Of a stretch of DNA of 64,000 bases, positions 1-63,480 are shown piece after piece (position 1 is the first letter of the stretch; each line of letters opens with the position of its first letter). The notes below the pieces were generated by a model. It did not search any database, was not told the DNA's origin, and saw nothing but the letters and a program-made list of their open reading frames with translations. The translations under genes and the position numbers were made by a program. Location: the NCBI GenBank assembly GCA_024347235.1, contig AP025283.1:806001-870000 (forward strand). The letters run 5' to 3'. This stretch comes from Aliamphritea spongicola. GTDB taxonomy: Bacteria; Pseudomonadota; Gammaproteobacteria; Pseudomonadales; Balneatricaceae.

Positions 1-635
1 TGGATAATGGCCGTGAAATGACCGTTCACTGCCCGAATACCGGTTCAATGAAAAACTGTGCAGACCCCGGCAGCCGTGCCTGGATTCAGGATTCCGGCAA
101 TCTGAAACGTAAATATGTCTATGGCTGGGAGCTGGTGGAAGTTGAAGGCCGTTATCTGGCCTGTATTAACACCGGCCGGGCTAACCATCTGGTGCGTGAG
201 GCAATTGAAAGCGGCGTAGCAGAGCCGCTGCAAGGTTATGGAACCCTGCGTACGGAAGTGAAATACGGTGCGGAAAACAGCCGTATCGATTTACTGCTGC
301 AACAGGAAGGCCGGGCTGACTGTTATGTAGAAGTAAAGAATGTCACTTTATTTGAAGGTGACGGGCTGGGGACATTCCCGGATGCCGTCACGACCCGTGG
401 TGCCAAGCATTTGCGGGAACTGATGGCCATGGTAGCTGAAGGTCACCGGGCCGTGTTGTTTTTCTGTGTGCCCCATACCGGGATTGAACGGGTGATGCCG
501 GCGGATCATATCGACCCTGAATATGGTCAGTTATTGCGTGAAGCAGTCAATGCCGGAGTGGAAGTGATTGCCTACGGAGCCCGCATTACACCGGATGAAG
601 TCACACTGGTGCGGCAGTTACCGGTTATGCTTTAA
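1..635 (+). CDS. sfsA: SfsA family protein (5' end cut by window edge)
   Basis: SfsA was named for sugar fermentation stimulation and belongs to a nucleic-acid-binding, nuclease-like fold family; its physiological role is not firmly set. The reading frame is open from base 3, where the codons read DNGRE before the first internal Met at 18, so the true start lies upstream of the window. Visible family hallmarks are HCPNTGSM near the start, the [10 protein letters not shown] stretch, YVEVKNVTL and [16 protein letters not shown]. The last two carry the acidic and Lys residues typical of the nuclease-like core. About 211 residues are present of a usual 230 to 240. The gene is uninterrupted, unlike many others here. 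Confidence 0.93.
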
Positions 636-714
636 GGAATATTAGACTTGATTAAATTAGTTGTCGCTAATATTGTTGCGTCTTTACATTTTTATGATGG
701 CAAAGGGGCAATAA

Positions 715-1134
715 ATGACCAGTATGGCAGTGCCGGCGCTGGCCGGTGGTTTACTGATAGGGTTGTGTGCGGTGCTGATGATGGCCTGGCTGGGCCGTAT
801 TGCAGGTATCAGCGGGATATTCTGGCAGGCTGTTAGCCGGCCTGCTTTTTCTCCGGTGGCGCATGGCGCCTTTTCTTTGATTGGTTTGTTAACCGGCGCC
901 TGGACAGTACACAGGGTAACCGGGCTGGCATTGCCTGTTTTGCCAGAAACAGATACCTGGCAGATTGTTCTGGCAGGGTTGCTGGTCGGCTTCGGTGCCC
1001 GTTTAGGATCAGGCTGTACCAGTGGGCACGGCGTTTGTGGTATTGGCCGTTTGTCAGTGCGTTCACTGGTGGCTACCTGTGTGTTTGTACTGGCTGCGAT
1101 GCTGACTGTTTTCGTAATGAAGATGGGAGGCTGA
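715..1134 (+). CDS. YeeE/YedE family membrane protein, first half-transporter
   Basis: A 139-residue integral membrane protein of the YeeE/YedE (sulphur transport, DUF395-like) family. Members are linked to uptake of thiosulphate or other sulphur species. It shows about four hydrophobic segments and the conserved GFGARLGSGCTSGHG motif around residues 91 to 105, whose Cys is the key residue in this family. The ATG at 715 follows an AAAGGGG ribosome site. It lies one base before a second YeeE-like gene, the usual arrangement of two half-size proteins working as a pair. Substrate cannot be told from sequence. Confidence 0.85.
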   Translation: MTSMAVPALAGGLLIGLCAVLMMAWLGRIAGISGIFWQAVSRPAFSPVAHGAFSLIGLLTGAWTVHRVTGLALPVLPETDTWQIVLAGLLVGFGARLGSGCTSGHGVCGIGRLSVRSLVATCVFVLAAMLTVFVMKMGG

Positions 1135-1135
1135 C

Positions 1136-1604
1136 ATGAGCAGATTAACGGAATCTTCACTGGCGCTGTTCTGCGGCGGATTGTTTGGTGCAGGGCTTGC
1201 GTTATCCGGTATGACTGACCCGGCAAACATTATCGGCTTTTTAGATGTGACCGGCGCATGGAACCCGCAGCTTGTGTTTGTGCTGGCAGCTGCGGTTGGC
1301 ACTTCTGTCGCGGGTTTTTCTGGTTGGGGAAACGTTCCGGACCGGTATTTGCTCAGCGTTTCCACTGGCCGGAAGCTGCAGGAATTGATGCACGGTTATT
1401 AAGCGGTGCGGTTCTGTTTGGCATCGGCTGGGGTTGTATGGTTACTGTCCGGGGCCCGCGCTGGCGGCACTGGTATACGGGCAACAGGATACGGTGATGT
1501 TTGTTGTATCAATGCTGGCCGGTATAGTGATTTACCAGCTGTTACCCGGCCAGAAAAATGTCCCTGGAGTCAATTCGGAGCAATGCACAGCTGACCGTCG
1601 ATAA
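1136..1604 (+). CDS. YeeE/YedE-like membrane protein, second half-transporter (frameshifted in this sequence)
   Basis: Partner of the preceding YeeE protein, starting one base after its stop. The first frame gives LSGMTDPANIIGFLDVTGAWNPQL, typical of the second half. Reading then continues in a second frame (GIDARLLSGAVLFGIGWG) and a third (LYGYCPGPALAALVYGQQ), so two bases are missing. Adding one T to the T run at 1315-1319 and one G to the run at 1430-1433 restores one protein of about 156 residues. The CPGPAL motif is the family's second conserved Cys site. The 3' end is uncertain: as read it overlaps the convergent Rieske gene by about 35 bases, and another missing A near 1556 would shorten it. 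Confidence 0.75.
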
Positions 1605-1890
1605 CCTCAAAACTGACCGGTTCAAGGGATGTACCATTGCAGGGGCCGGCAATACACAAGCCTGCATCAATGGTAAATAATGCGCCGTGGGTGGCACACT
1701 GAATAAACTGTTTTTCAGGATCCAGGAAAGTATCCGGCATCCACTCAAGCGGCACACCCCGGTGGGGGCAACGGTTTTCATAAACGTATAGCTGATCGTT
1801 TTTACGGACTGCAAAAATGCCTCTGCCGTCAATTTCAAAGCCTTTGCTTTGCTGTTCTGTAATCTCGCTGGCGAGGCAGAGAGGTTGCAT
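1570..1890 (-). CDS. Small Rieske [2Fe-2S] domain protein
   Basis: A 106-residue soluble protein made of a single Rieske domain. It shows CPHRG and, 17 residues later, CATHGALF, giving the Cys-His plus Cys-His set that binds a 2Fe-2S cluster. No catalytic domain, signal peptide or membrane segment follows, so it resembles the NirD/ferredoxin-like small Rieske proteins that carry electrons. I chose the ATG at 1890 because a GGAG site sits about 8 bases upstream; a longer reading from 1947 adds residues with no family likeness. It converges on the YeeE pair. Redox partner unknown. Confidence 0.85.
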   Translation of the reverse strand: MQPLCLASEITEQQSKGFEIDGRGIFAVRKNDQLYVYENRCPHRGVPLEWMPDTFLDPEKQFIQCATHGALFTIDAGLCIAGPCNGTSLEPVSFEVIDGQLCIAPN

Positions 1891-2095
1891 AGGGAATTCT
1901 CCGTTAAAAATTGTGTCTATCTTATCCGTCAGTGATGTGCTGAACAAAAGTTATTATTTGCTCAGAACATATTCAGGCAACAATTTACACAATACCGGGG
2001 TCTGATAAACTCTCGTTTCATTCTTAACCTGCAGCAGTTGTTACCTATTTTTCGGTGCAGGCGCTTTGCTCTTATTCCAGGATTATTAAGTATTT

Positions 2096-4430
2096 ATGGC
2101 CAAAAGCAGCGACGAAGCGTAAGTCGCGTAATTCAAAGTCTAAGGCAGCTAAACCTTCATGGTTACGGCGGCTTTTGGCTGTTCTTTAAGCTGGGGCTGT
2201 TACTCAGCGTATTTGCCGCAATCGGTCTGGTGTATCTGGATATTCAGATTCGGGCCAAATTTGAGGGTAAGCGCTGGGCGTTGCCGGCCAAGGTATATGC
2301 CCGCCCGTTGGAATTGTACCCGGGACAGGTGCTGAGCCGTGAAAGTCTTAAACTGGAGCTGAAGGGCCTGGGGTATAAATTTCAAGCCCGGGCCAGTCAG
2401 CCCGGGACCGTTGAGTGGGCCAGCCGCCGGGCCCGGATTTATTCACGGGGCTTTGACTTTGTAGACGGCCTCGAGCCGAGCCGGCGTTTGCTGGTGGATT
2501 TTTCCGGCGATACTGTCAGCCGGATTCGGGACGATGCCGGGCGTAATATTAACTTGGCACGTCTGGAGCCGATCCAGATTGGCGGTATTTACCCCAAGTC
2601 GAATGAAGACCGGGACCTGCTGCAGATCGAGCAGGCCCCGCCTTATCTGGTAGACGCGCTGGTGGCTATCGAGGACCGGGATTATTACTCCCACTACGGG
2701 GTTTCGCCGAAAGGGATTGCCCGGGCCATGTGGGTAAACCTCAAAGCCGGCCGGATTGTTCAGGGGCAGTACCCTGACTCAGCAGCTAATCAAAAACTTT
2801 TATTTAACCTCGGAACGTTCCTATGTACGTAAGTTACTGGAAATCCCGATGGCATTCTTGCTGGACCGTCATTACAGCAAGGATGAAATCCTTGAAGCGT
2901 ATCTGAACGAAGTCTATCTGGGGCAGAAGGGTAACCGTGCGATTCATGGTTTCGGACTGGCCAGCCAGTATTTCTTTGCTCAGCCCATTCAGGAACTCCG
3001 ACTGCATCAGGTGGCGTTGCTGGCCGCAATGGTCAAGGGACCGTCTTATTATGATCCGCGCCGTAATCCTGCCCGGGCGAAAAAGCGCCGGGATCTGGTA
3101 CTAAAAGTACTGCAGGATCAGGGCACGATTACCGCTAAACAGCGCCATCAGGCACAGCAACAGCCTTTGGGAGTGGTAAAGCAGAAGAGTCTGCATCGCG
3201 GTGCATATCCGGCGTATCTGGATCTGGTGAAACGCCAGTTACGGGAAGAATATCCGGATGAAGTGCTCAGCAGTGACGGGTTGCGGATTTTTACCGCGCT
3301 GGACCCTGTGGTTCAGGCCAATGCTGAGCAGAGTCTGGTATCGAGTGTGAAATCGATAACCAAACGTTACGGCAAAAAGTGGCCAAGTTGCAGGGTGGTA
3401 TGGTGGTCAGTAACCCTTACAGCGGTGAAGTGCTGGCGGTGGTCGGCGGTAAGAATACCCGCTATCAGGGATTTAACCGTGCCATTGATGCGATCCGCCC
3501 AGTGGGCTCACTGATCAAGCCGGCGGTGTATCTGACCGCGCTGGAAAAAGGTTACACCCTTGCGTCGCTTCTGGAAGATGAACCTTTAACCGTTGAATTG
3601 CCGGATGGCCCGTGGTCACCGAAAAACTATGACCGTAAGAGCCATGGTCCGGTGCCGCTGTATTATTCACTGGCTAAATCCTATAACCAGTCCACGGTGC
3701 GTCTGGGGATGGATGTTGGCGTGGATGAGGTGCTGGATACCCTGCGGCGCTTAGGATTTAACCGTGACTTACCGGCCTATCCGTCACTGTTCTTGGGGGC
3801 GACGGCGATGTCACCGATTGAGGTGGCGCAGATCTACCAGACCATTGCCGGTAATGGCTTCCAGTTACCGCTGCGGGCGATCCGTATGGTGGCTGATGCC
3901 GAAAATCAGGAGTTGTCCCGTTATCCGCTGGTGGTGCAGCAAACGGTGAATGCCGGGCCGATGTATCAGTTACAGTTCGCCCTGCAGCAGGTAGGGCATA
4001 TCGGTACTGCCCGTTCGGCGTATGCCAGCCTGCCACAGGGCCTGAATCTGGCGGGCAAGACCGGTACCACTAATGATCAGCGTGACAGTTGGTTTGCTGG
4101 CTTTACCGGTGACCGCCTGGCGGTTGTCTGGCTGGGGGCGGATGATAACAGTACCTTGCCGTTAACCGGCAGCAGCGGTGCGCTGAAAACCTGGATAGAA
4201 CTGATGAAGCGGGAACGGCCGCAGCCACTGATTCTGGATCAGCCTGCTGAAGTGGAATACCTGTGGGTGGACGAACTGACCGGGCTGGGATCGGCAGAAG
4301 AGTGTGGCGGTGTGCAGCTGCCATTCTTGCTGGAGAATGAGCCGCAGGAGTATATTCCATGCGCCGCTGCGTATGCGCCGGGTTATGTGGAAGACGAACC
4401 GCTGGACTGGCTGAAAAATGGTTCCGCTAA
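2096..4430 (+). CDS. mrcB: Bifunctional penicillin-binding protein 1b (frameshifted in this sequence)
   Basis: Class A PBP that polymerises and cross-links peptidoglycan in the periplasm, anchored by one membrane helix (LLLSVFAAIGLVYLD). The order is basic N-terminus, helix, UB2H-like region, GT51 glycosyltransferase (EDRDYYSHYG with the catalytic Glu, then GGSTLTQQL) and transpeptidase with SLIK, SYN and KTGTT as the Ser-x-x-Lys, S-x-N and K-T-G motifs. It is read in pieces. Bases are missing at the A runs near 2101 and 2114, probably at 2188-2192, at G 2763-2766 (two), A 3374-3378 and A 4414-4418. The last repair ends the protein in LKKWFR at 4430, just before a terminator, instead of running on to 4548. 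Repaired length is about 780 residues, normal for PBP1b. The exact N-terminus is the weakest part. Confidence 0.9.
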
Positions 4431-6969: not shown

Positions 6970-7872
6970 ATGAAGCAGCCAAGCCAACGCTTAAGAACTC
7001 TGACCCGCAGCGCATTCTTTGCGCTGTTTCTCGTTGCACCGGTGCTGGATATCTTTCGCTATGATTTGGTTGCCGGACATTTCGTAATTTTTACCTATCC
7101 GCTGAGTCTGGGGCTGGAATCGATACAGGGTCACGATGCTGCGTTGCAGATTCTTCTGCGGGTGCTGTTACCTGCAGTAATACTGATTGCCCTGGGTATC
7201 TGGATTGCTTACAAATTTGGTCGGCTCTACTGCGGCTGGCTGTGCCCGCACTTCTCTGTCGTTGAACTGATTAATGGCCGGATGCAAAAGCTGTTGGGAC
7301 GGCCAACCATCTGGGAAGCTGGCTCTAAACCTCACAGTGTGTCTTCCTGGCTGAGCCTTGTTGTTGTTGCGGTGCTCATCGCCTTTACCTGGGCGGTTGG
7401 GTTGCTGGGGTATCTGTTGCCGCCGCTGGAGCTTTATAAAGATTTATTAACCGGTGAGCTGGGATTCACCAGTTGGCTGTTTTTAGGCGTGGCCACCACG
7501 CTGTTTACTATTGATTTTCTGTTTGCTCGCCATCTGTTCTGCAAGTTTGGCTGTGCACTGGGTGTGTTTCAGAGCCTGGTCTGGATGATGAACCCCAAAG
7601 CACTGATGGTGAGTTTTGATGCCAGCCGTGCAGCCTTATGTAAAGACTGCGATAAAGCTTGCGATAAAGCCTGTCCGATGCGTTTGCCAGCCCGCAGTAT
7701 TAAGCGGAAGAAGTTTACCTGTACTCAGTGCAGTGAATGTATTCAGGCGTGTAATGTCGTGCAGAAGGATAACCCCGATGGCAGTTTGCTGCACTGGGGT
7801 AACGGCGATCCGCGACGCAGCTCTGATGCAGATAAAATTATTCCCAGTGTCGATATAGGAGCCCGGAAATGA
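6970..7872 (+). CDS. Polytopic membrane 4Fe-4S ferredoxin-type protein (NapH/NosR-C-terminal/CcoG-like)
   Basis: A 300-residue membrane iron-sulphur protein. Four to five hydrophobic segments are interspersed with CGWLCPH and CKFGCALG, followed by a soluble end with two ferredoxin-like cysteine clusters (CKDCDKACDKACPM and CTQCSECIQACN). This layout is that of NapH, CcoG and the C-terminal part of NosR, which move electrons between quinol and periplasmic or cytoplasmic partners. It lies between norB and norE and overlaps norE by ATGA, so it belongs to the nor operon. Its job in NO reduction is not established: assembly or electron supply are both possible. Confidence 0.8.
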   Translation: MKQPSQRLRTLTRSAFFALFLVAPVLDIFRYDLVAGHFVIFTYPLSLGLESIQGHDAALQILLRVLLPAVILIALGIWIAYKFGRLYCGWLCPHFSVVELINGRMQKLLGRPTIWEAGSKPHSVSSWLSLVVVAVLIAFTWAVGLLGYLLPPLELYKDLLTGELGFTSWLFLGVATTLFTIDFLFARHLFCKFGCALGVFQSLVWMMNPKALMVSFDASRAALCKDCDKACDKACPMRLPARSIKRKKFTCTQCSECIQACNVVQKDNPDGSLLHWGNGDPRRSSDADKIIPSVDIGARK

Positions 7873-50321: not shown

Positions 50322-50336
50322 GCTCTTTAACAATTT
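50322..50336 (+). promoter_or_regulatory. boxA antitermination element in the rRNA leader
   Basis: GCTCTTTAACAATTTG matches the NusB/NusE boxA. A second copy lies in the 16S-23S spacer at 52277-52288. Confidence 0.85.
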
Positions 50337-52163: not shown

Positions 52164-52432
52164 TTCTTCATCCTGAAGAACGGTCAGTACTTAAATGCTT
52201 TGTTCCTGAGAACACAAAAGCTAATGAATAGGTTGTTGATAACCTGTTAATTACCTTTTGTCTTTTTAGACAAAACGCTCTTTAACAATTTAAATCCTGT
52301 AACGAGAATTAAGTAAGACAAATGTACAAGCGCTAATCCGGCGTAAATGTATCGTTACTTCAGCGTTAACTGTTTAACAGTTGGCTATGAAGTTTAATCA
52401 GTTACTTTGAATCAGACCCTTTTGGGTTATAT

Positions 52433-59617: not shown

Positions 59618-60717
59618 TGCATATTGCAATTGTAGGCTGTGGACAGCTGGCGCGGATGATGGCGCTGGCAGGCTGGCCAATGGGTTACCGCTTTACGTTT
59701 CTGGCCGGTGCTGGTGAGAATACAACCTGTGTTAAAGGACTGGGCGACATCGTTGACCTGACCGATGATATGACAGGCAATTCACTGTTTACTGCGCTGG
59801 GTGGACCGGATGTGGTGACCGTTGAGCGTGAGCATGTTGATACAGCATTGCTGAAGACACTGGTACCGCACTGTGCAGTCTATCCTCAGCCAGAAGCAAT
59901 AGAAGTGTGTCAGCACCGTGGCCGTGAGAAAACCTTCCTGAATAATCTGGGGATTCCGACTGCGAATTTCCGCGTGGCGAACAGCGATGAAGAGCTGCAG
60001 GCTGCGATTGATGAAATGGGTACTCCGGTACTGATTAAGTCATGTGAAGAAGGCTACGATGGCCGGGGGCAGTGGCTGATCGAAAATCCACAGCAACTGA
60101 CTGACTTGCTGAACAGCGATACGGTTTTACCTGAAGTTGTTGTTGAAGGCTTTGTTAAGTTTGAGCGGGAAGTATCTCTGGTCGCAGCACGTTCACCAAA
60201 CGGTGATATCAACTGCTACCCGTTGGCAGAAAACCACCACAGTGGCGGTATTCTGCTGAGCTCTGTTGCTCCGGCTCCTGCGCTGACTGATGAAATGACC
60301 GCGCAGGCCAAAGAGATCGCTGATGCAATCTTCAACAAGCTTAATTATGTAGGTGTGCTGGCGATTGAATTATTTGTCAGCGATGGCAAGCTCATTGTGA
60401 ATGAGCTGGCGCCCCGTGTGCATAACAGCGGCCACTGGACTCAGATTGCAGGCATTTGTACACAGTTTGAAAATCATATGCGTGCGATTACTTCTGTTGG
60501 CCTGGGTACCACTGAGCCGACAGGTCATTCTGCCATGGTTAACCTGCTGGGTTGTGACCCAACCCCGGAAATGGTGGATATGAGTAATGTACAGCTGCAT
60601 AAGTACAATAAATCCCTGCGTCCGAACCGTAAGGTTGGCCATCTGAATCTGCGCCATAACAGCCTTGAAGAGCTGCAGCAGCAGGTTGAGAAGTTTAAGC
60701 AGGAACTCTACGGCTAA
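59617..60717 (+). CDS. purK: N5-carboxyaminoimidazole ribonucleotide synthase
   Basis: ATP-grasp enzyme joining bicarbonate to AIR, the step before PurE. Motifs are IAIVGCGQLARMMALAGW, TVEREHVDT, LIKSCEEGYDGRGQW (ATP-grasp), VVVEGFVKFEREVSLVAAR and NELAPRVHNSGHWT. It has 366 residues and is intact. I chose ATG 59617 since GGAGG at 59605-59609 fits it; ATG 59611 is too close to that site. Confidence 0.97.
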   Translation: MHIAIVGCGQLARMMALAGWPMGYRFTFLAGAGENTTCVKGLGDIVDLTDDMTGNSLFTALGGPDVVTVEREHVDTALLKTLVPHCAVYPQPEAIEVCQHRGREKTFLNNLGIPTANFRVANSDEELQAAIDEMGTPVLIKSCEEGYDGRGQWLIENPQQLTDLLNSDTVLPEVVVEGFVKFEREVSLVAARSPNGDINCYPLAENHHSGGILLSSVAPAPALTDEMTAQAKEIADAIFNKLNYVGVLAIELFVSDGKLIVNELAPRVHNSGHWTQIAGICTQFENHMRAITSVGLGTTEPTGHSAMVNLLGCDPTPEMVDMSNVQLHKYNKSLRPNRKVGHLNLRHNSLEELQQQVEKFKQELYG

Positions 60718-60744
60718 AAGCTATTCTGCTTTTCTATATAGAAG

Positions 60745-60779
60745 AGCCCGGTTGCTGATATCAGTGACCGGGCTTTTTA
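60745..60779 (+). terminator. Terminator after purEK
   Basis: The stem AGCCCGGT with ACCGGGCT encloses a self-complementary CTGATATCAG and is followed by TTTTT. Confidence 0.88.
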
Positions 60780-60943
60780 TTGCGCGGAATATCAGAAAAA
60801 TAGCAGGAAGGCTAAAAATTGGTGGTGATGCTGTTGCTGTGAATATATTGCAGGCAGCGAAAGTGTTGGTGAATTTTGAGTTATACCAGCTTCAGGGAGG
60901 GAGAAGTGAAGCTGGCGGTAAGATTGGCTTTGGTTCTGAGCGT

Positions 60944-61039
60944 TTATTCAGAATCAGTCGATTCGGTTTTATTGCCCTCGGTTTCTTTTTCAGTTGGTTT
61001 TTCGTCATTTTGTCCGTCACAGGAGCCACAGCAACCCAT
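60944..61039 (-). CDS. Tiny CCGSC-motif protein
   Basis: A 31-residue protein beginning MGCCGSCDG, then a very acidic and polar tail (EKPTEKETEGNKTESTDSE). AGAGG lies seven bases before the ATG. Small proteins with a CCGSC start occur in gammaproteobacteria; the vicinal cysteines could bind metal or undergo oxidation, but no function is shown. It is flanked by non-coding sequence, so it may have its own transcript. Confidence 0.55.
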   Translation of the reverse strand: MGCCGSCDGQNDEKPTEKETEGNKTESTDSE

Positions 61040-61238
61040 AATGTACCTCTGTTTTGTTAAGCAAATTTAGTGGTTAGAAATGTATCCTGCTGCTAGCTAA
61101 GAGTATTTGATATCCATCAATTCGCAGTTCAGTCATTTGGCAGAGTGATAAGCAGTATTCTGTTGTCGTGTTGGATGACAGTCTGAGAGATCTATAAATC
61201 TGTTAAGAGGTTTGATATCTAAGAGAGTAAGAGACGTT

Positions 61239-61507
61239 GACGGTGGTCCTCGGGGCTTAAACTCAGGTGCTTTGTGCCAACTTTTTATAAAGAATAAAGA
61301 GTGAGTCGGATGCTTTAAATCTAAGAATGAAAAAGTGATGGTGGGCCTTCCGGGACTCGGATTCAGGACCTGTGAGATCTATAAAGAGCGAGTCGGATGC
61401 TCTAAAAGAATGCGTATAAGATGGTGGGCCTTCCGGGGCTCGAGCCCAAGACCTGTGAGATCTATAAAGAGTGAGTCGGATGCTCAAAATCTAAGAGAGA
61501 AATAAAT
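61239..61507 (-). repeat. Three decayed tandem copies of tRNA-derived sequence
   Basis: Units start at 61239, 61337 and 61420, followed by the true tRNA at 61508, so the spacing is 98, 83 and 88 bases. On the plus strand each begins GATGGTGGGCCTTCCGGG (GACGGTGGTCCTCGGGG in the oldest), the reverse of the tRNA 3' acceptor and T-arm. It continues through ACTCRGG-like T-arm remains and ends GAGTCGGATGCT(C), the anticodon-stem part. The 5' half of the tRNA is missing and an AT-rich insert, often TGAGATCTATAAAGAG, replaces the anticodon region. In the direction of tRNA transcription these copies lie just after the tRNA. Confidence 0.85.
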
Positions 61508-61509
61508 GA

Positions 61510-61586
61510 TGGTGGGCCTTCCGGGACTCGAACCCAGGACCTGCCGATTATGAGTCGGATGCTCTAACCAACTGAGCTAAAGGCCC
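61510..61586 (-). tRNA. tRNA with CAT anticodon, probably tRNA-Ile2
   Basis: A 77-base tRNA, acceptor stem GGGCCTT with AAGGCCC, anticodon CAT in CTCATAA, T-arm GGTTCGAGTCC and an encoded CCA. CAT could mean elongator Met or Ile2 (lysidine-modified). C4-G69 and C5-G68 in the acceptor stem match the TilS identity pattern of Ile2 and differ from elongator tRNA-Met, so I favour Ile2. It lies between rpoD and the tRNA-derived repeats. Confidence 0.88.
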
Positions 61587-61649
61587 CCACAGGAGGGTGC
61601 CCATAATACCACAAGGTAAAATGGGCACAAGAGTTTGATTTAACTAGTT

Positions 61650-63480
61650 TTAATGATCGTCCAGGAAGCCACGCAGGTGGTCTGAACGGCTTGGGTGACG
61701 TAGCTTACGAAGGGCTTTTGCTTCGATCTGACGGATACGCTCACGGGTTACATCAAACTGCTTACCAACCTCTTCAAGGGTGTGGTCAGTGTTCATATTG
61801 ATACCGAAACGCATACGCAACACTTTGGCTTCACGGGCTGTCAGGCCGGCCAGAACTTCCTTGGTTGCTTCGCGCAGACCTTCGCCAGTCGCAGAATCAA
61901 CAGGGGAATCAATGGTTACGTCTTCAATGAAATCACCCAGGCTTGAATCTTCATCGTCGCCGATTGGGGTTTCCATTGAAATAGGTTCTTTGCGATTTTC
62001 AGAACCTTGCGGATCTTATCTTCAGGCATATCCATACGTTCAGCCAGTTCTTCAGGGGTAGGTTCACGACCCATTTCCTGCAGCATCTGACGTGAGATAC
62101 GGTTCAGCTTGTTGATGGTTTCGATCATGTGTACCGGGATACGGATGGTACGTGCCTGGTCAGCAATCGAACGGGTGATTGCCTGACGGATCCACCAGGT
62201 TGCGTATGTGGAGAATTTGTAACCGCGACGGTATTCAAACTTATCCACTGCTTTCATCAGGCCGATGTTACCTTCCTGAATCAGATCCAGGAACTGTAAG
62301 CCACGGTTGGTGTATTTCTTAGCGATTGAGATTACCAGACGCAGGTTGGCTTCAACCATTTCCTTTTTCGCGCGACGGGCACGTGCTTCACCGATAGACA
62401 TGCGACGGTTAACGTCTTTCATCTCATTCAGTGTCAGCTGGATGTCACCTTCAATCTGGATCAGTTTTTCTGTGCGCGCTTGAGTTCGATCTCATGGCGT
62501 TTCAGTGCAGGCGCATAGGCTGCATCTGAATTGATCAGGTTCTGAAGCCATTCAGTGTTGGTTTCATTGCCTGGGAATTCTTTAATAAACTGACGGCGCG
62601 GCATTTTTGCACGCTGGGTGCAAATCTGCATGATGGTACGCTCCTGACGGCGAATGCGGTCAATAGCGTCACGTACGTTATCAACCAGCATGTCGTAATA
62701 ACGCGGGGCCAGTTTAATCGGTGAAAACGCATCGGTCAGTTCGTTAAAAGCTTTCGCGGCAGCTTTGCTGTCACGGCCCTGACTTTCGGTTGCTTTCAGA
62801 TACGTGATGTAAGTGCTGCGTACCAGATCGAAGCGGCGTTTTGCTTCTTCCGGATCCGGTCCGCGCTCTTTCTCTTCGTCATCATCGTCTTCTTCTGATT
62901 CGTCATCATCTTCAGAATCGGTTTCAGCAACAGTCGAAGGTGCGGCAGTTGGGATTTCATTACCTTCATCCGGATCAATATACCCACTGAAGATATCGCT
63001 CAGGCGGCCTTCTTCTTCCAGGGTGGCATCGTAAGCACCCAGAATAGCTTCTACAGAGCCTGGGAACGCAGCCAGACCAGCCATGACTTCACGCAGGCCT
63101 TCTTCGATGCGTTTTGCGATTTCAATCTCGCCCTGGCGGGTCAGCAGTTCTACAGTACCCATTTCACGCATGTACATGCGGACCGGGTCAGTTGTACGGC
63201 CGGCATCTGATTCAACGGCAGCCAGTGCGGCAACGGCTTCATCGTCTGCTTCTTCTGCAGAATCGCCTTCGGTCATCAGCAGAGTTTCTGCATCAGGCGC
63301 TTCTTCGGTTACAGAAATGCCCATGTCGTTGATCATGCGAATGATGTCTTCGACTTGATCCGGATCGGCAATATCTTCTGGCAGGTGGTCATTGACTTCA
63401 GCGTAGGTAAGGTAGCCTTGTTCCTTACCGCGTGCGATCAGTTCCTTGAGGCGTGACTGCTGCTGGGAGGTGTCTGACAT
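61650..63480 (-). CDS. rpoD: RNA polymerase housekeeping sigma factor sigma-70 (two frameshifts)
   Basis: Primary sigma factor. Region 1.1 reads [29 protein letters not shown]; region 1.2 is [30 protein letters not shown]; an acidic non-conserved insert ([17 protein letters not shown]) follows. Region 2 is [57 protein letters not shown], and region 4 is [29 protein letters not shown]. Missing bases at 62465-62469 and 61989-61991 give three pieces; repair gives 610 residues, right for the family. RpoD is essential, so the breaks cannot be real. Confidence 0.98.

What the first reader, a model, noticed from the sequence alone, without database searches (positions are those of the whole stretch)
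61239..61586. tRNA followed by an array of decaying copies of itself
Three units of about 83 to 98 bases downstream of the CAT tRNA keep its 3' acceptor/T-arm and anticodon-stem parts but lose its 5' half. Degradation grows with distance from the gene. This recalls the tyrT repeats of E. coli, where pieces of the tRNA 3' end repeat after the gene and yield a small RNA. The array may give a processed RNA, tRNA-like fragments, or simply record slipped duplication. An attachment-site role seems less likely as no integrase is present.
Basis: partly seen in the sequence, partly recalled or inferred. Interest (0 to 1): 0.68.

Follow-up and report, generated by a model that had tools for sequence, protein, structure and literature searches.

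The report
tRNA-tail repeats carrying a boxA-like insert
Behind a tRNA gene in a marine bacterium lies a short run of truncated copies of that tRNA whose anticodon loop is interrupted by a conserved boxA-like sequence; related bacteria carry the same kind of run behind several tRNA genes, so it is a real and possibly regulatory feature, not plain decay.

Summary
The array is real and longer than reported: behind the tRNA-CAT gene at 61510-61586(-), read here as tRNA-Ile2, lie three units and a fourth vestige (61187-61198). They are not simply decaying copies: units 1 and 2 keep tRNA nt ~20-35 and ~44-77 around an identical 16-nt insert that replaces the anticodon loop. Twelve of 17 Amphritea genomes show arrays at this tRNA. 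In the window's own genome units of the same design follow two tRNA-fMet genes, and differently interrupted ones follow tRNA-Leu, -Asp and -Gln; others occur in scattered genera of the order. Units match their own host's tRNA 3' end (64 of 67 uniquely best), so array and tRNA evolve together. The insert starts with CTCTTTA, close to boxA, the NusB/S10 antitermination signal. The closest known thing is the E. coli tyrT/tyrV repeat array. A Nus-factor role is the best but unproven mechanism: there are no expression data, several units match boxA poorly, and in some arrays a terminator precedes the first unit.

The parts
61510..61586 (-). tRNA gene with CAT anticodon; acceptor GGGCCTT/AAGGCCC gives C4-G69 and C5-G68, so read as tRNA-Ile2 (lysidine type)
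   Evidence: ARAGORN, Rfam; two other tRNA-Met(CAT) genes of a different sequence, taken as elongator, and three tRNA-fMet genes lie elsewhere. The TilS identity rule is recalled.
61422..61485 (-). unit 1: tRNA nt ~20-36, insert, tRNA nt ~44-77 (CCACCA)
61456..61471 (-). unit 1 insert CTCTTTATAGATCTCA in place of the anticodon loop; begins with boxA-like CTCTTTA
   Evidence: boxA consensus from PMC5725501
61339..61405 (-). unit 2: tRNA nt ~20-35, insert, tRNA nt ~44-77
61373..61389 (-). unit 2 insert GCTCTTTATAGATCTCA; GCTCTTTA (61382-61389) equals the rRNA boxA core, and TCGCTCTTTA (61382-61391) equals the 10-mer of the rRNA leader
61242..61316 (-). unit 3, more diverged: 5' part and CTCTTTA (61295-61316), decayed T-arm/acceptor 61242-61269
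61187..61198 (-). vestige of a fourth unit (TTTATAGATCTC)
   Evidence: family D5
50322..50329 (+). boxA core of the rRNA operon leader (GCTCTTTAACAATTT), used as comparison
52277..52284 (+). boxA core of the 16S-23S spacer, used as comparison
61650..63480 (-). rpoD directly upstream of the tRNA, split into three ORFs in this assembly

Best explanation
This is a tRNA-trailer repeat of the tyrT kind. Tandem duplication of a segment that starts inside the tRNA gene and runs past its 3' end made 5'-truncated copies behind an intact gene. The copies share their last ~34 nt with the gene, and unequal exchange or conversion within that shared stretch keeps them in step with their own tRNA. In place of the anticodon loop each copy carries an insert that starts with a boxA-like sequence (R-CUCUUUA). 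The most likely working, inferred and not shown, is at the RNA level: RNA polymerase leaving the tRNA gene transcribes the units, NusB and S10 (NusE) bind the boxA-like inserts, and the Nus-modified polymerase is delayed or made resistant to Rho in the trailer, so that ending of the transcript or processing of the tRNA 3' end is tuned. Shown: layout, recurrence, co-evolution with the tRNA, motif resemblance. Inferred: transcription, binding, effect, and the exchange mechanism.
For: Same-strand, downstream-only placement within 800 nt, in the stretches fetched: copies behind 8 of 77 tRNA genes in the window's genome, 3 of 64 in Amphritea G015 and 1 of 36 in G171, none antisense; the one upstream hit is the unit lying between two tRNA-Gln genes. 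Arrays at this tRNA in 12 of 17 Amphritea genomes. Co-evolution: of 67 units in 24 Ile2-type arrays (one array gave none at the threshold) 64 uniquely best match their own tRNA's last 36 nt among 15 distinct ends, 2 tie, 1 does not; permuted labels give mean 7.4, maximum 33 in 2000. Insert not ascertained by the search: the motif-blind pattern gave 13 hits in 12 of 390 order genomes; 8 look like units, and 6 of these 8 have CTCT exactly 2 nt after GACTC. In the same genome most tRNA-fMet units carry CTCTTTATAAC and tRNA-Leu(CAA) units GCTTTTCATAAC. Over 29 representatives the match to boxA GYTCTTTAANA averages 7.8 of 11, against 4.3 for shuffles; consensus read in PMC5725501 section 13. Unit 2 shares TCGCTCTTTA with the rRNA leader in the window. 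The Ile2 trailer has no intrinsic-terminator-like site on its strand, which leaves room for a Rho-type end.
Against: Position 9 of the boxA consensus is T in 16 of 29 representatives and A in 3; G171, G208 and G550 match only 5 of 11, four more only 6. Most of the 29 were found with patterns holding part of the motif, and the 8-mer GCTCTTTA alone is not rare in the window (3 found, 1.7 expected). Behind tRNA-fMet and tRNA-Leu in this genome a terminator-like site lies between the tRNA and the first unit, likewise, by eye, in G171, so units there may not be on the tRNA transcript. Asp and Gln inserts do not resemble boxA, and one Asp unit has an intact anticodon arm. boxA normally precedes the RNA it serves (recalled). 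PMC4807359 itself argues that at rRNA the main role of Nus factors is not antitermination (passages). Inside arrays the insert block is not significantly more constant than the T-arm block (lower in 14 of 22 arrays, p=0.27). No conserved fold of the insert (mean z -0.28 over 37 units). The tyrT repeats show no boxA-like 8-mer within one mismatch. No expression data.
Confidence: 0.35

Rival explanations
1. Neutral minisatellite: tandem duplication and slippage at a tRNA 3' end, with exchange between copies; insert and spacer have no function and the motif is inherited or a mutational quirk.
For: Tandem layout, variable copy number (1 to at least 9), decayed last units; T-arm blocks of units differ 3-23% from the tRNA; no significant extra constraint on the insert within arrays; units found in only 8 of 390 order genomes by the pattern.
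Against: The same insert start recurs behind different tRNAs and in different families of the order, also in motif-blind hits; a neutral insert should not stay recognisable across families while the sequence beside it does not.
Confidence: 0.3
2. Integration-related relic or decoy: units are copies of the tRNA attachment site whose crossover loop (anticodon loop here, T loop in tyrT) is broken, either scars of integrative elements or sites that bind integrase without recombining.
For: This tRNA is an integration site in relatives: G042 and G043 have a second tRNA 3' half starting at the anticodon loop (G042 with an integrase-family ORF near that copy), G005 an integrase gene beside the tRNA, G355 an integrase and a tRNA 3' half with intact CTCATAATCGG upstream of its array. 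That such integrases cross over in tRNA loops is recalled.
Against: Of 19 array-bearing genomes only G355 has a listed integrase match near its Ile2 array; the list was cut off. 0 matches in viral contigs. The attR-like copies of G042, G043 and G355 keep CTCATAA while window units do not.
Confidence: 0.15
3. Terminator or pausing module: units supply Rho loading sequence (C/T-rich, G-poor spacer and insert) or, with an upstream hairpin, an intrinsic stop, insulating a strong tRNA gene from its neighbour.
For: Window trailer lacks an intrinsic terminator on its strand and has more C than G in the first 80 nt (21 vs 15); fMet units contain terminator-like hairpins with T runs (by eye); hairpins just 5' of the motif in some lineages (5 of 29 with p<0.05, Fisher p 4.5e-4). 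A Rho-dependent stop in the tyrT repeats is recalled.
Against: Arrays occur with and without intrinsic terminators; 16 of 35 terminal tRNAs in this genome have a terminator-like site, array or not; the four Amphritea Ile2 representatives have no hairpin stronger than -1.5 kcal/mol there.
Confidence: 0.15

Closest known systems
Escherichia coli tyrT/tyrV repeats (rttR / rtT RNA, tpr)
   Same: Tandem repeats behind a tRNA on the same strand, each with the tRNA 3' end and CCA, and each looking like a truncated tRNA copy interrupted in a loop.
   Different: tRNA-Tyr, 178-nt spacing, interruption in the T loop by about 67 nt, no boxA-like 8-mer within one mismatch; E. coli units overlap an annotated small RNA, untested here.
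boxA of rRNA operons and lambda nut sites (NusB/NusE)
   Same: CTCTTTA core; up to 11 of 11 (A. balenae) and 10 of 11 (fMet units of three lineages) match to GYTCTTTAANA.
   Different: Lies downstream of the RNA gene, repeated, in a broken tRNA copy; position 9 usually T; several lineages match poorly.
tRNA attachment-site remnants (attR) of integrative elements
   Same: A second copy of the tRNA 3' half downstream of the gene.
   Different: Units are tandem, mostly 77-98 nt apart in Ile2 arrays, without an adjoining integrase in the listed matches bar G355, and the crossover loop is broken.
tRNA-derived repeats (SINE-like)
   Same: Repeats derived from a tRNA.
   Different: Local to the parent gene; the tRNAscan-SE 2.0 paper states such elements have not been found in bacteria or archaea (PMC8450103, passages read).

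Membership tests
tyrT/rtT-type tRNA 3' repeats | tandem units behind a tRNA, same strand, each with the tRNA 3' end | tested here: met
tyrT/rtT-type tRNA 3' repeats | truncated tRNA copy interrupted in a loop | tested here: met
   anticodon loop here; T loop in E. coli, where the support is weaker (11, 15 and 24 of 500 shuffles reach the score)
tyrT/rtT-type tRNA 3' repeats | stable small RNA released from the repeat | not testable with these tools
   no expression data; Rfam matches nothing in the array but the tRNA
boxA (NusB/NusE site) | match to GYTCTTTAANA | tested here: inconclusive
   mean 7.8 of 11 over 29 representatives; exact in A. balenae; position 9 differs in most
boxA (NusB/NusE site) | NusB-S10 binding and effect on Rho | not testable with these tools
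   needs biochemistry
boxA (NusB/NusE site) | lies 5' of the RNA it serves | tested here: not met
   units lie 3' of the tRNA; what else they might serve is unknown
integrative-element attachment site | integrase gene at the array | tested here: not met
   nearest listed PF00589 match in G000 lies over 200 kb from the window's array; near an Ile2 array in 1 of 19 genomes (list cut off)
integrative-element attachment site | intact crossover core in the downstream copy | tested here: not met
   CTCATAA replaced in window units 1-3; kept in the downstream copies of G042, G043 and G355

The most novel reading that the evidence does not exclude
tRNA genes of marine Pseudomonadales carry tandem boxA-charged trailers: the anticodon loop of truncated tRNA copies has been converted into a Nus-factor landing site, so that transcription of initiator and Ile2 tRNA genes loads or titrates NusB-S10 and couples tRNA output to rRNA antitermination, while unequal exchange with the tRNA keeps the trailers alive.
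Probability: 0.15. Interest if true: 0.85.

Novelty: new variant of a known kind. Interest (0 to 1): 0.58.

Why it matters
It suggests that the odd tyrT repeats of E. coli are not a one-off: truncated, loop-interrupted tRNA copies behind their parent gene recur in scattered genera of one gammaproteobacterial order (and, behind tRNA-fMet, in two genera outside it) and behind several tRNAs of one genome, against the printed view that tRNA-derived repeats are absent from bacteria. If the insert works as boxA, the Nus complex would reach tRNA genes, and the old question of what the tyrT repeats are for could be tested by comparison. Even if neutral, it is a clear case of a minisatellite that co-evolves with an essential gene.

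Tried and rejected
Antisense promoter from T loop (-35) and TATAAA (-10) of the insert: considered because the reverse strand reads TATAAAGAG; no promoter-like site in 60700-61750; dropped.

Conserved RNA fold of the insert: no support (mean z -0.28 over 37 units, 11 below -1). A hairpin directly upstream of the motif exists only in some lineages.

Phage origin: motif with T-arm absent from viral contigs. Motif as a genome-wide site: the non-tRNA matches of GACTC-N-CTCTYTA in Amphritea that I viewed (seven loci) had no tRNA copy beside them and look like chance hits; the same scan revealed the fMet arrays.

CAT-specificity: first thought, then dropped when Asp, Leu and Gln units appeared in the same genome.

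Extra constraint on the insert inside arrays: direction as expected (median 0.042 vs 0.069 T-arm vs 0.088 spacer) but p=0.27; the 22 arrays include one spoilt by an N run (G208) and one with doubtful unit chaining (G009 fMet). The first version mixed the tRNA into unit chains and was set aside; one search had register errors (46 of 50 units own-best) and was replaced.

Ile2-type units outside the order: 0 of 369 class genomes (five of them of the order, the window's own included) with the pattern, which also misses the window's own units, so sensitivity is limited. fMet-type pattern: 3 of 369 genomes including the window's own; the other two belong to one family, f110.

Literature: ten searches ran; none of their listings shows a report of such arrays. 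Read: passages of PMC8450103, passages and section 13 of PMC5725501, passages of PMC4807359. The eLife paper on boxA and CRISPR arrays is not held; it is recalled and not used as evidence.

Full report
What is there. The window's tRNA-CAT gene (61510-61586, minus) follows rpoD. Its acceptor stem GGGCCTT/AAGGCCC puts C-G pairs at 4-69 and 5-68, as expected for tRNA-Ile2 (recalled rule); two other tRNA-Met(CAT) genes, taken as elongator, and three tRNA-fMet genes are elsewhere. Downstream on the minus strand come unit 1 (61422-61485), unit 2 (61339-61405), unit 3 (61242-61316) and a vestige (61187-61198). Units 1 and 2 consist of tRNA nt ~20-35/36, the 16-nt insert CTCTTTATAGATCTCA, and tRNA nt ~44-77. 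Each of six parts of units 1-3 aligns to the tRNA with a score that 0 of 1000 shuffles reach. So the reported array is confirmed, but the middle is an insert and not decay.

Relatives. The window's genome belongs with Amphritea: contigs of four named Amphritea species and one unnamed strain match the unit pattern, and four of these contigs have exactly the lengths of contigs of same-genus handles G006, G007, G010 and G014. Arrays stand behind this tRNA in 12 of 17 genomes of the genus. Of the five others, G005 has an integrase gene beside the tRNA and no array in the 700 nt viewed; G003, G004, G013 and G016 were not viewed, as one search listed no match of the tRNA region there that I could follow (all are split into many contigs). 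Outside the genus, G034 and G078 of another genus in the family have arrays. A strict pattern matched 9 of 116 family genomes and missed the window itself. A motif-blind pattern gave 13 hits in 12 of 390 order genomes; by inspection 8 are units: 6 beside an intact CAT tRNA, 1 beside a tRNA 3' half, 1 without visible tRNA; 5 are chance or other tRNA pieces. A motif-bearing pattern gave 24 contigs in the named collection; I viewed 20 of the 24, of which 18 look like units and 2 (Streptomyces, Marinimicrobia) like chance. They include Marinobacterium, Microbulbifer, Aestuariicella, Thalassolituus, Motiliproteus and an Osedax symbiont. No match in viral contigs.

Other tRNAs. In the window's own genome, 3'-half copies (25 of 34 nt or better, within 800 nt) lie downstream of 8 of 77 tRNA genes in the fetched stretches: Ile2, two of three fMet genes (four copies each at that threshold, five units each by eye), Asp(GTC), two Leu(CAA) genes and two Gln(TTG) genes that share one intervening unit. 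None is antisense; the one upstream hit is that same Gln unit. In G015 it is 3 of 64 (Ile2 and two fMet), in G171 1 of 36 (Ile2). fMet units include a terminator-like hairpin with T run, and the first unit lies behind the tRNA's own. In G171 the units are nearly whole tRNAs with an interrupted anticodon loop and a terminator-like hairpin between copies.

Co-evolution. T-arm and acceptor of the units differ between species together with the tRNA. In 24 Ile2-type arrays, 67 units were found at the threshold used; 64 are uniquely closest to their own tRNA's last 36 nt, 2 tie and 1 is closer to another; with permuted labels the mean is 7.4 and the largest value in 2000 permutations 33. One of the 24 arrays (G008) gave no unit at this threshold. 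A counter-example outside this test is L092, where a unit and the preceding copy differ in the T stem. Unequal crossing-over inside the shared 3' half would give this pattern and would leave the unit-specific insert untouched; that is inference.

The insert. Of the 8 motif-blind units, 6 have CTCT exactly two bases after GACTC. fMet units in this genome read (A/G)CTCTTTATAAC, bar one with CTCTTTAATAAC, and Leu units GCTTTTCATAAC. The consensus CTCTTTA recalls boxA, for which GYTCTTTAANA is given for gammaproteobacteria (PMC5725501, section 13). In the window the 8-mer GCTCTTTA occurs three times: rRNA leader boxA, 16S-23S spacer boxA, and unit 2; chance would give 1.7, so the count is not the argument. 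What counts is the position in the units and the recurrence. Over 29 hand-picked representatives the match averages 7.8 of 11 against 4.3 for shuffles; A. balenae (G007) is exact; G171, G208 and G550 have 5 of 11 and four others 6. Most of the 29 were found with patterns that contain part of the motif, so only the motif-blind hits are free of that bias. A hairpin ends just before the motif in some lineages, as recalled for rRNA leaders (5 of 29 with p<0.05; Fisher p 4.5e-4), but not in the four Amphritea Ile2 representatives.

How it may work. The best guess is an RNA-level trailer whose boxA-like inserts recruit NusB-S10. PMC4807359 (passages) recounts that boxA inhibits Rho-dependent termination of reporters and that high-level nutL transcription titrates Nus factors; the same paper argues that at rRNA antitermination is not the main role. 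The window's Ile2 trailer lacks an intrinsic terminator on its strand, which leaves room for a Rho-type end. The weak points are the terminator-like sites ahead of units in other arrays, the poor boxA match in some lineages, the Asp and Gln inserts, and the absence of expression data. I therefore give 0.35.

Known relatives. The E. coli tyrT/tyrV locus, read from MG1655, has three repeats behind tyrV and one between the genes. Each has the tRNA 3' end (last 19 nt, at most 3 mismatches); those behind tyrV also have, about 67 nt upstream of it, a piece resembling the T arm up to the T loop; 11, 15 and 24 of 500 shuffles reach that score, so this part is suggestive. No boxA-like 8-mer within one mismatch is present there. 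The layout is the same kind; the loop and the insert differ. Attachment-site relic: among the listed integrase matches of 19 array-bearing genomes only G355 has one near its Ile2 array, and the listing was cut off; where elements sit at this tRNA (G042, G043, G355), the downstream copy keeps the intact loop.

Novelty. The listings of ten searches of the held library show no description of such arrays, and the tRNAscan-SE 2.0 paper says tRNA-derived repetitive elements have not been found in bacteria or archaea. Most subscription papers, which would include the classical tyrT work, are not held. I rate it a new variant of a known kind.

Noticed in passing
window 61650-63480 (-): rpoD is split into three ORFs (sigma70 regions 1.1-ner, 2-3, 3-4). 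As rpoD is essential, this points to frameshift errors in the assembly, whose completeness is listed as 78.5%.
   Followed up: partly
window 60944-61039 (-): A 31-aa ORF (MGCCGSCDGQNDEKPTEKETEG...) lies behind the array; a near-identical ORF is visible behind the array of G012. No Pfam or NCBIfam match.
   Followed up: partly
L043 (G005) 495-3950: An integrase gene (396 aa, PF00589) sits beside tRNA-Ile2, and 3.3 kb away lies an inverted copy of the tRNA 5' half with its upstream region, breaking at the anticodon loop.
   Followed up: partly
L182 and L183 (G000 C1 3915282 and 3954568): The tRNA-Leu(CAA) gene with its unit is duplicated ~39 kb apart, identical for 141 nt upstream and 732 nt from the tRNA start.
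   Followed up: partly
L036 (G034) array: Near two units lies an inverted copy of the tRNA anticodon arm (CTGCCGATTATGAGTCGG in the first), complementary to the tRNA itself.
   Followed up: no
L047 (G006) array: The array is interrupted by, and followed by, a REP-like GTAGCGAGCGAC...GTCGCGATTGAA sequence (name from memory).
   Followed up: no
L088 (Osedax symbiont) 7009-7405: Three tandem tRNA-fMet genes with a degenerate 3' piece after one of them and a boxA-like unit after the last.
   Followed up: no
L194, L195 (G550, G785; family f110): fMet units outside the order form a GC-rich hairpin closely followed by GCTTTC or GCTTTTG, which looks half-way to an intrinsic terminator.
   Followed up: partly
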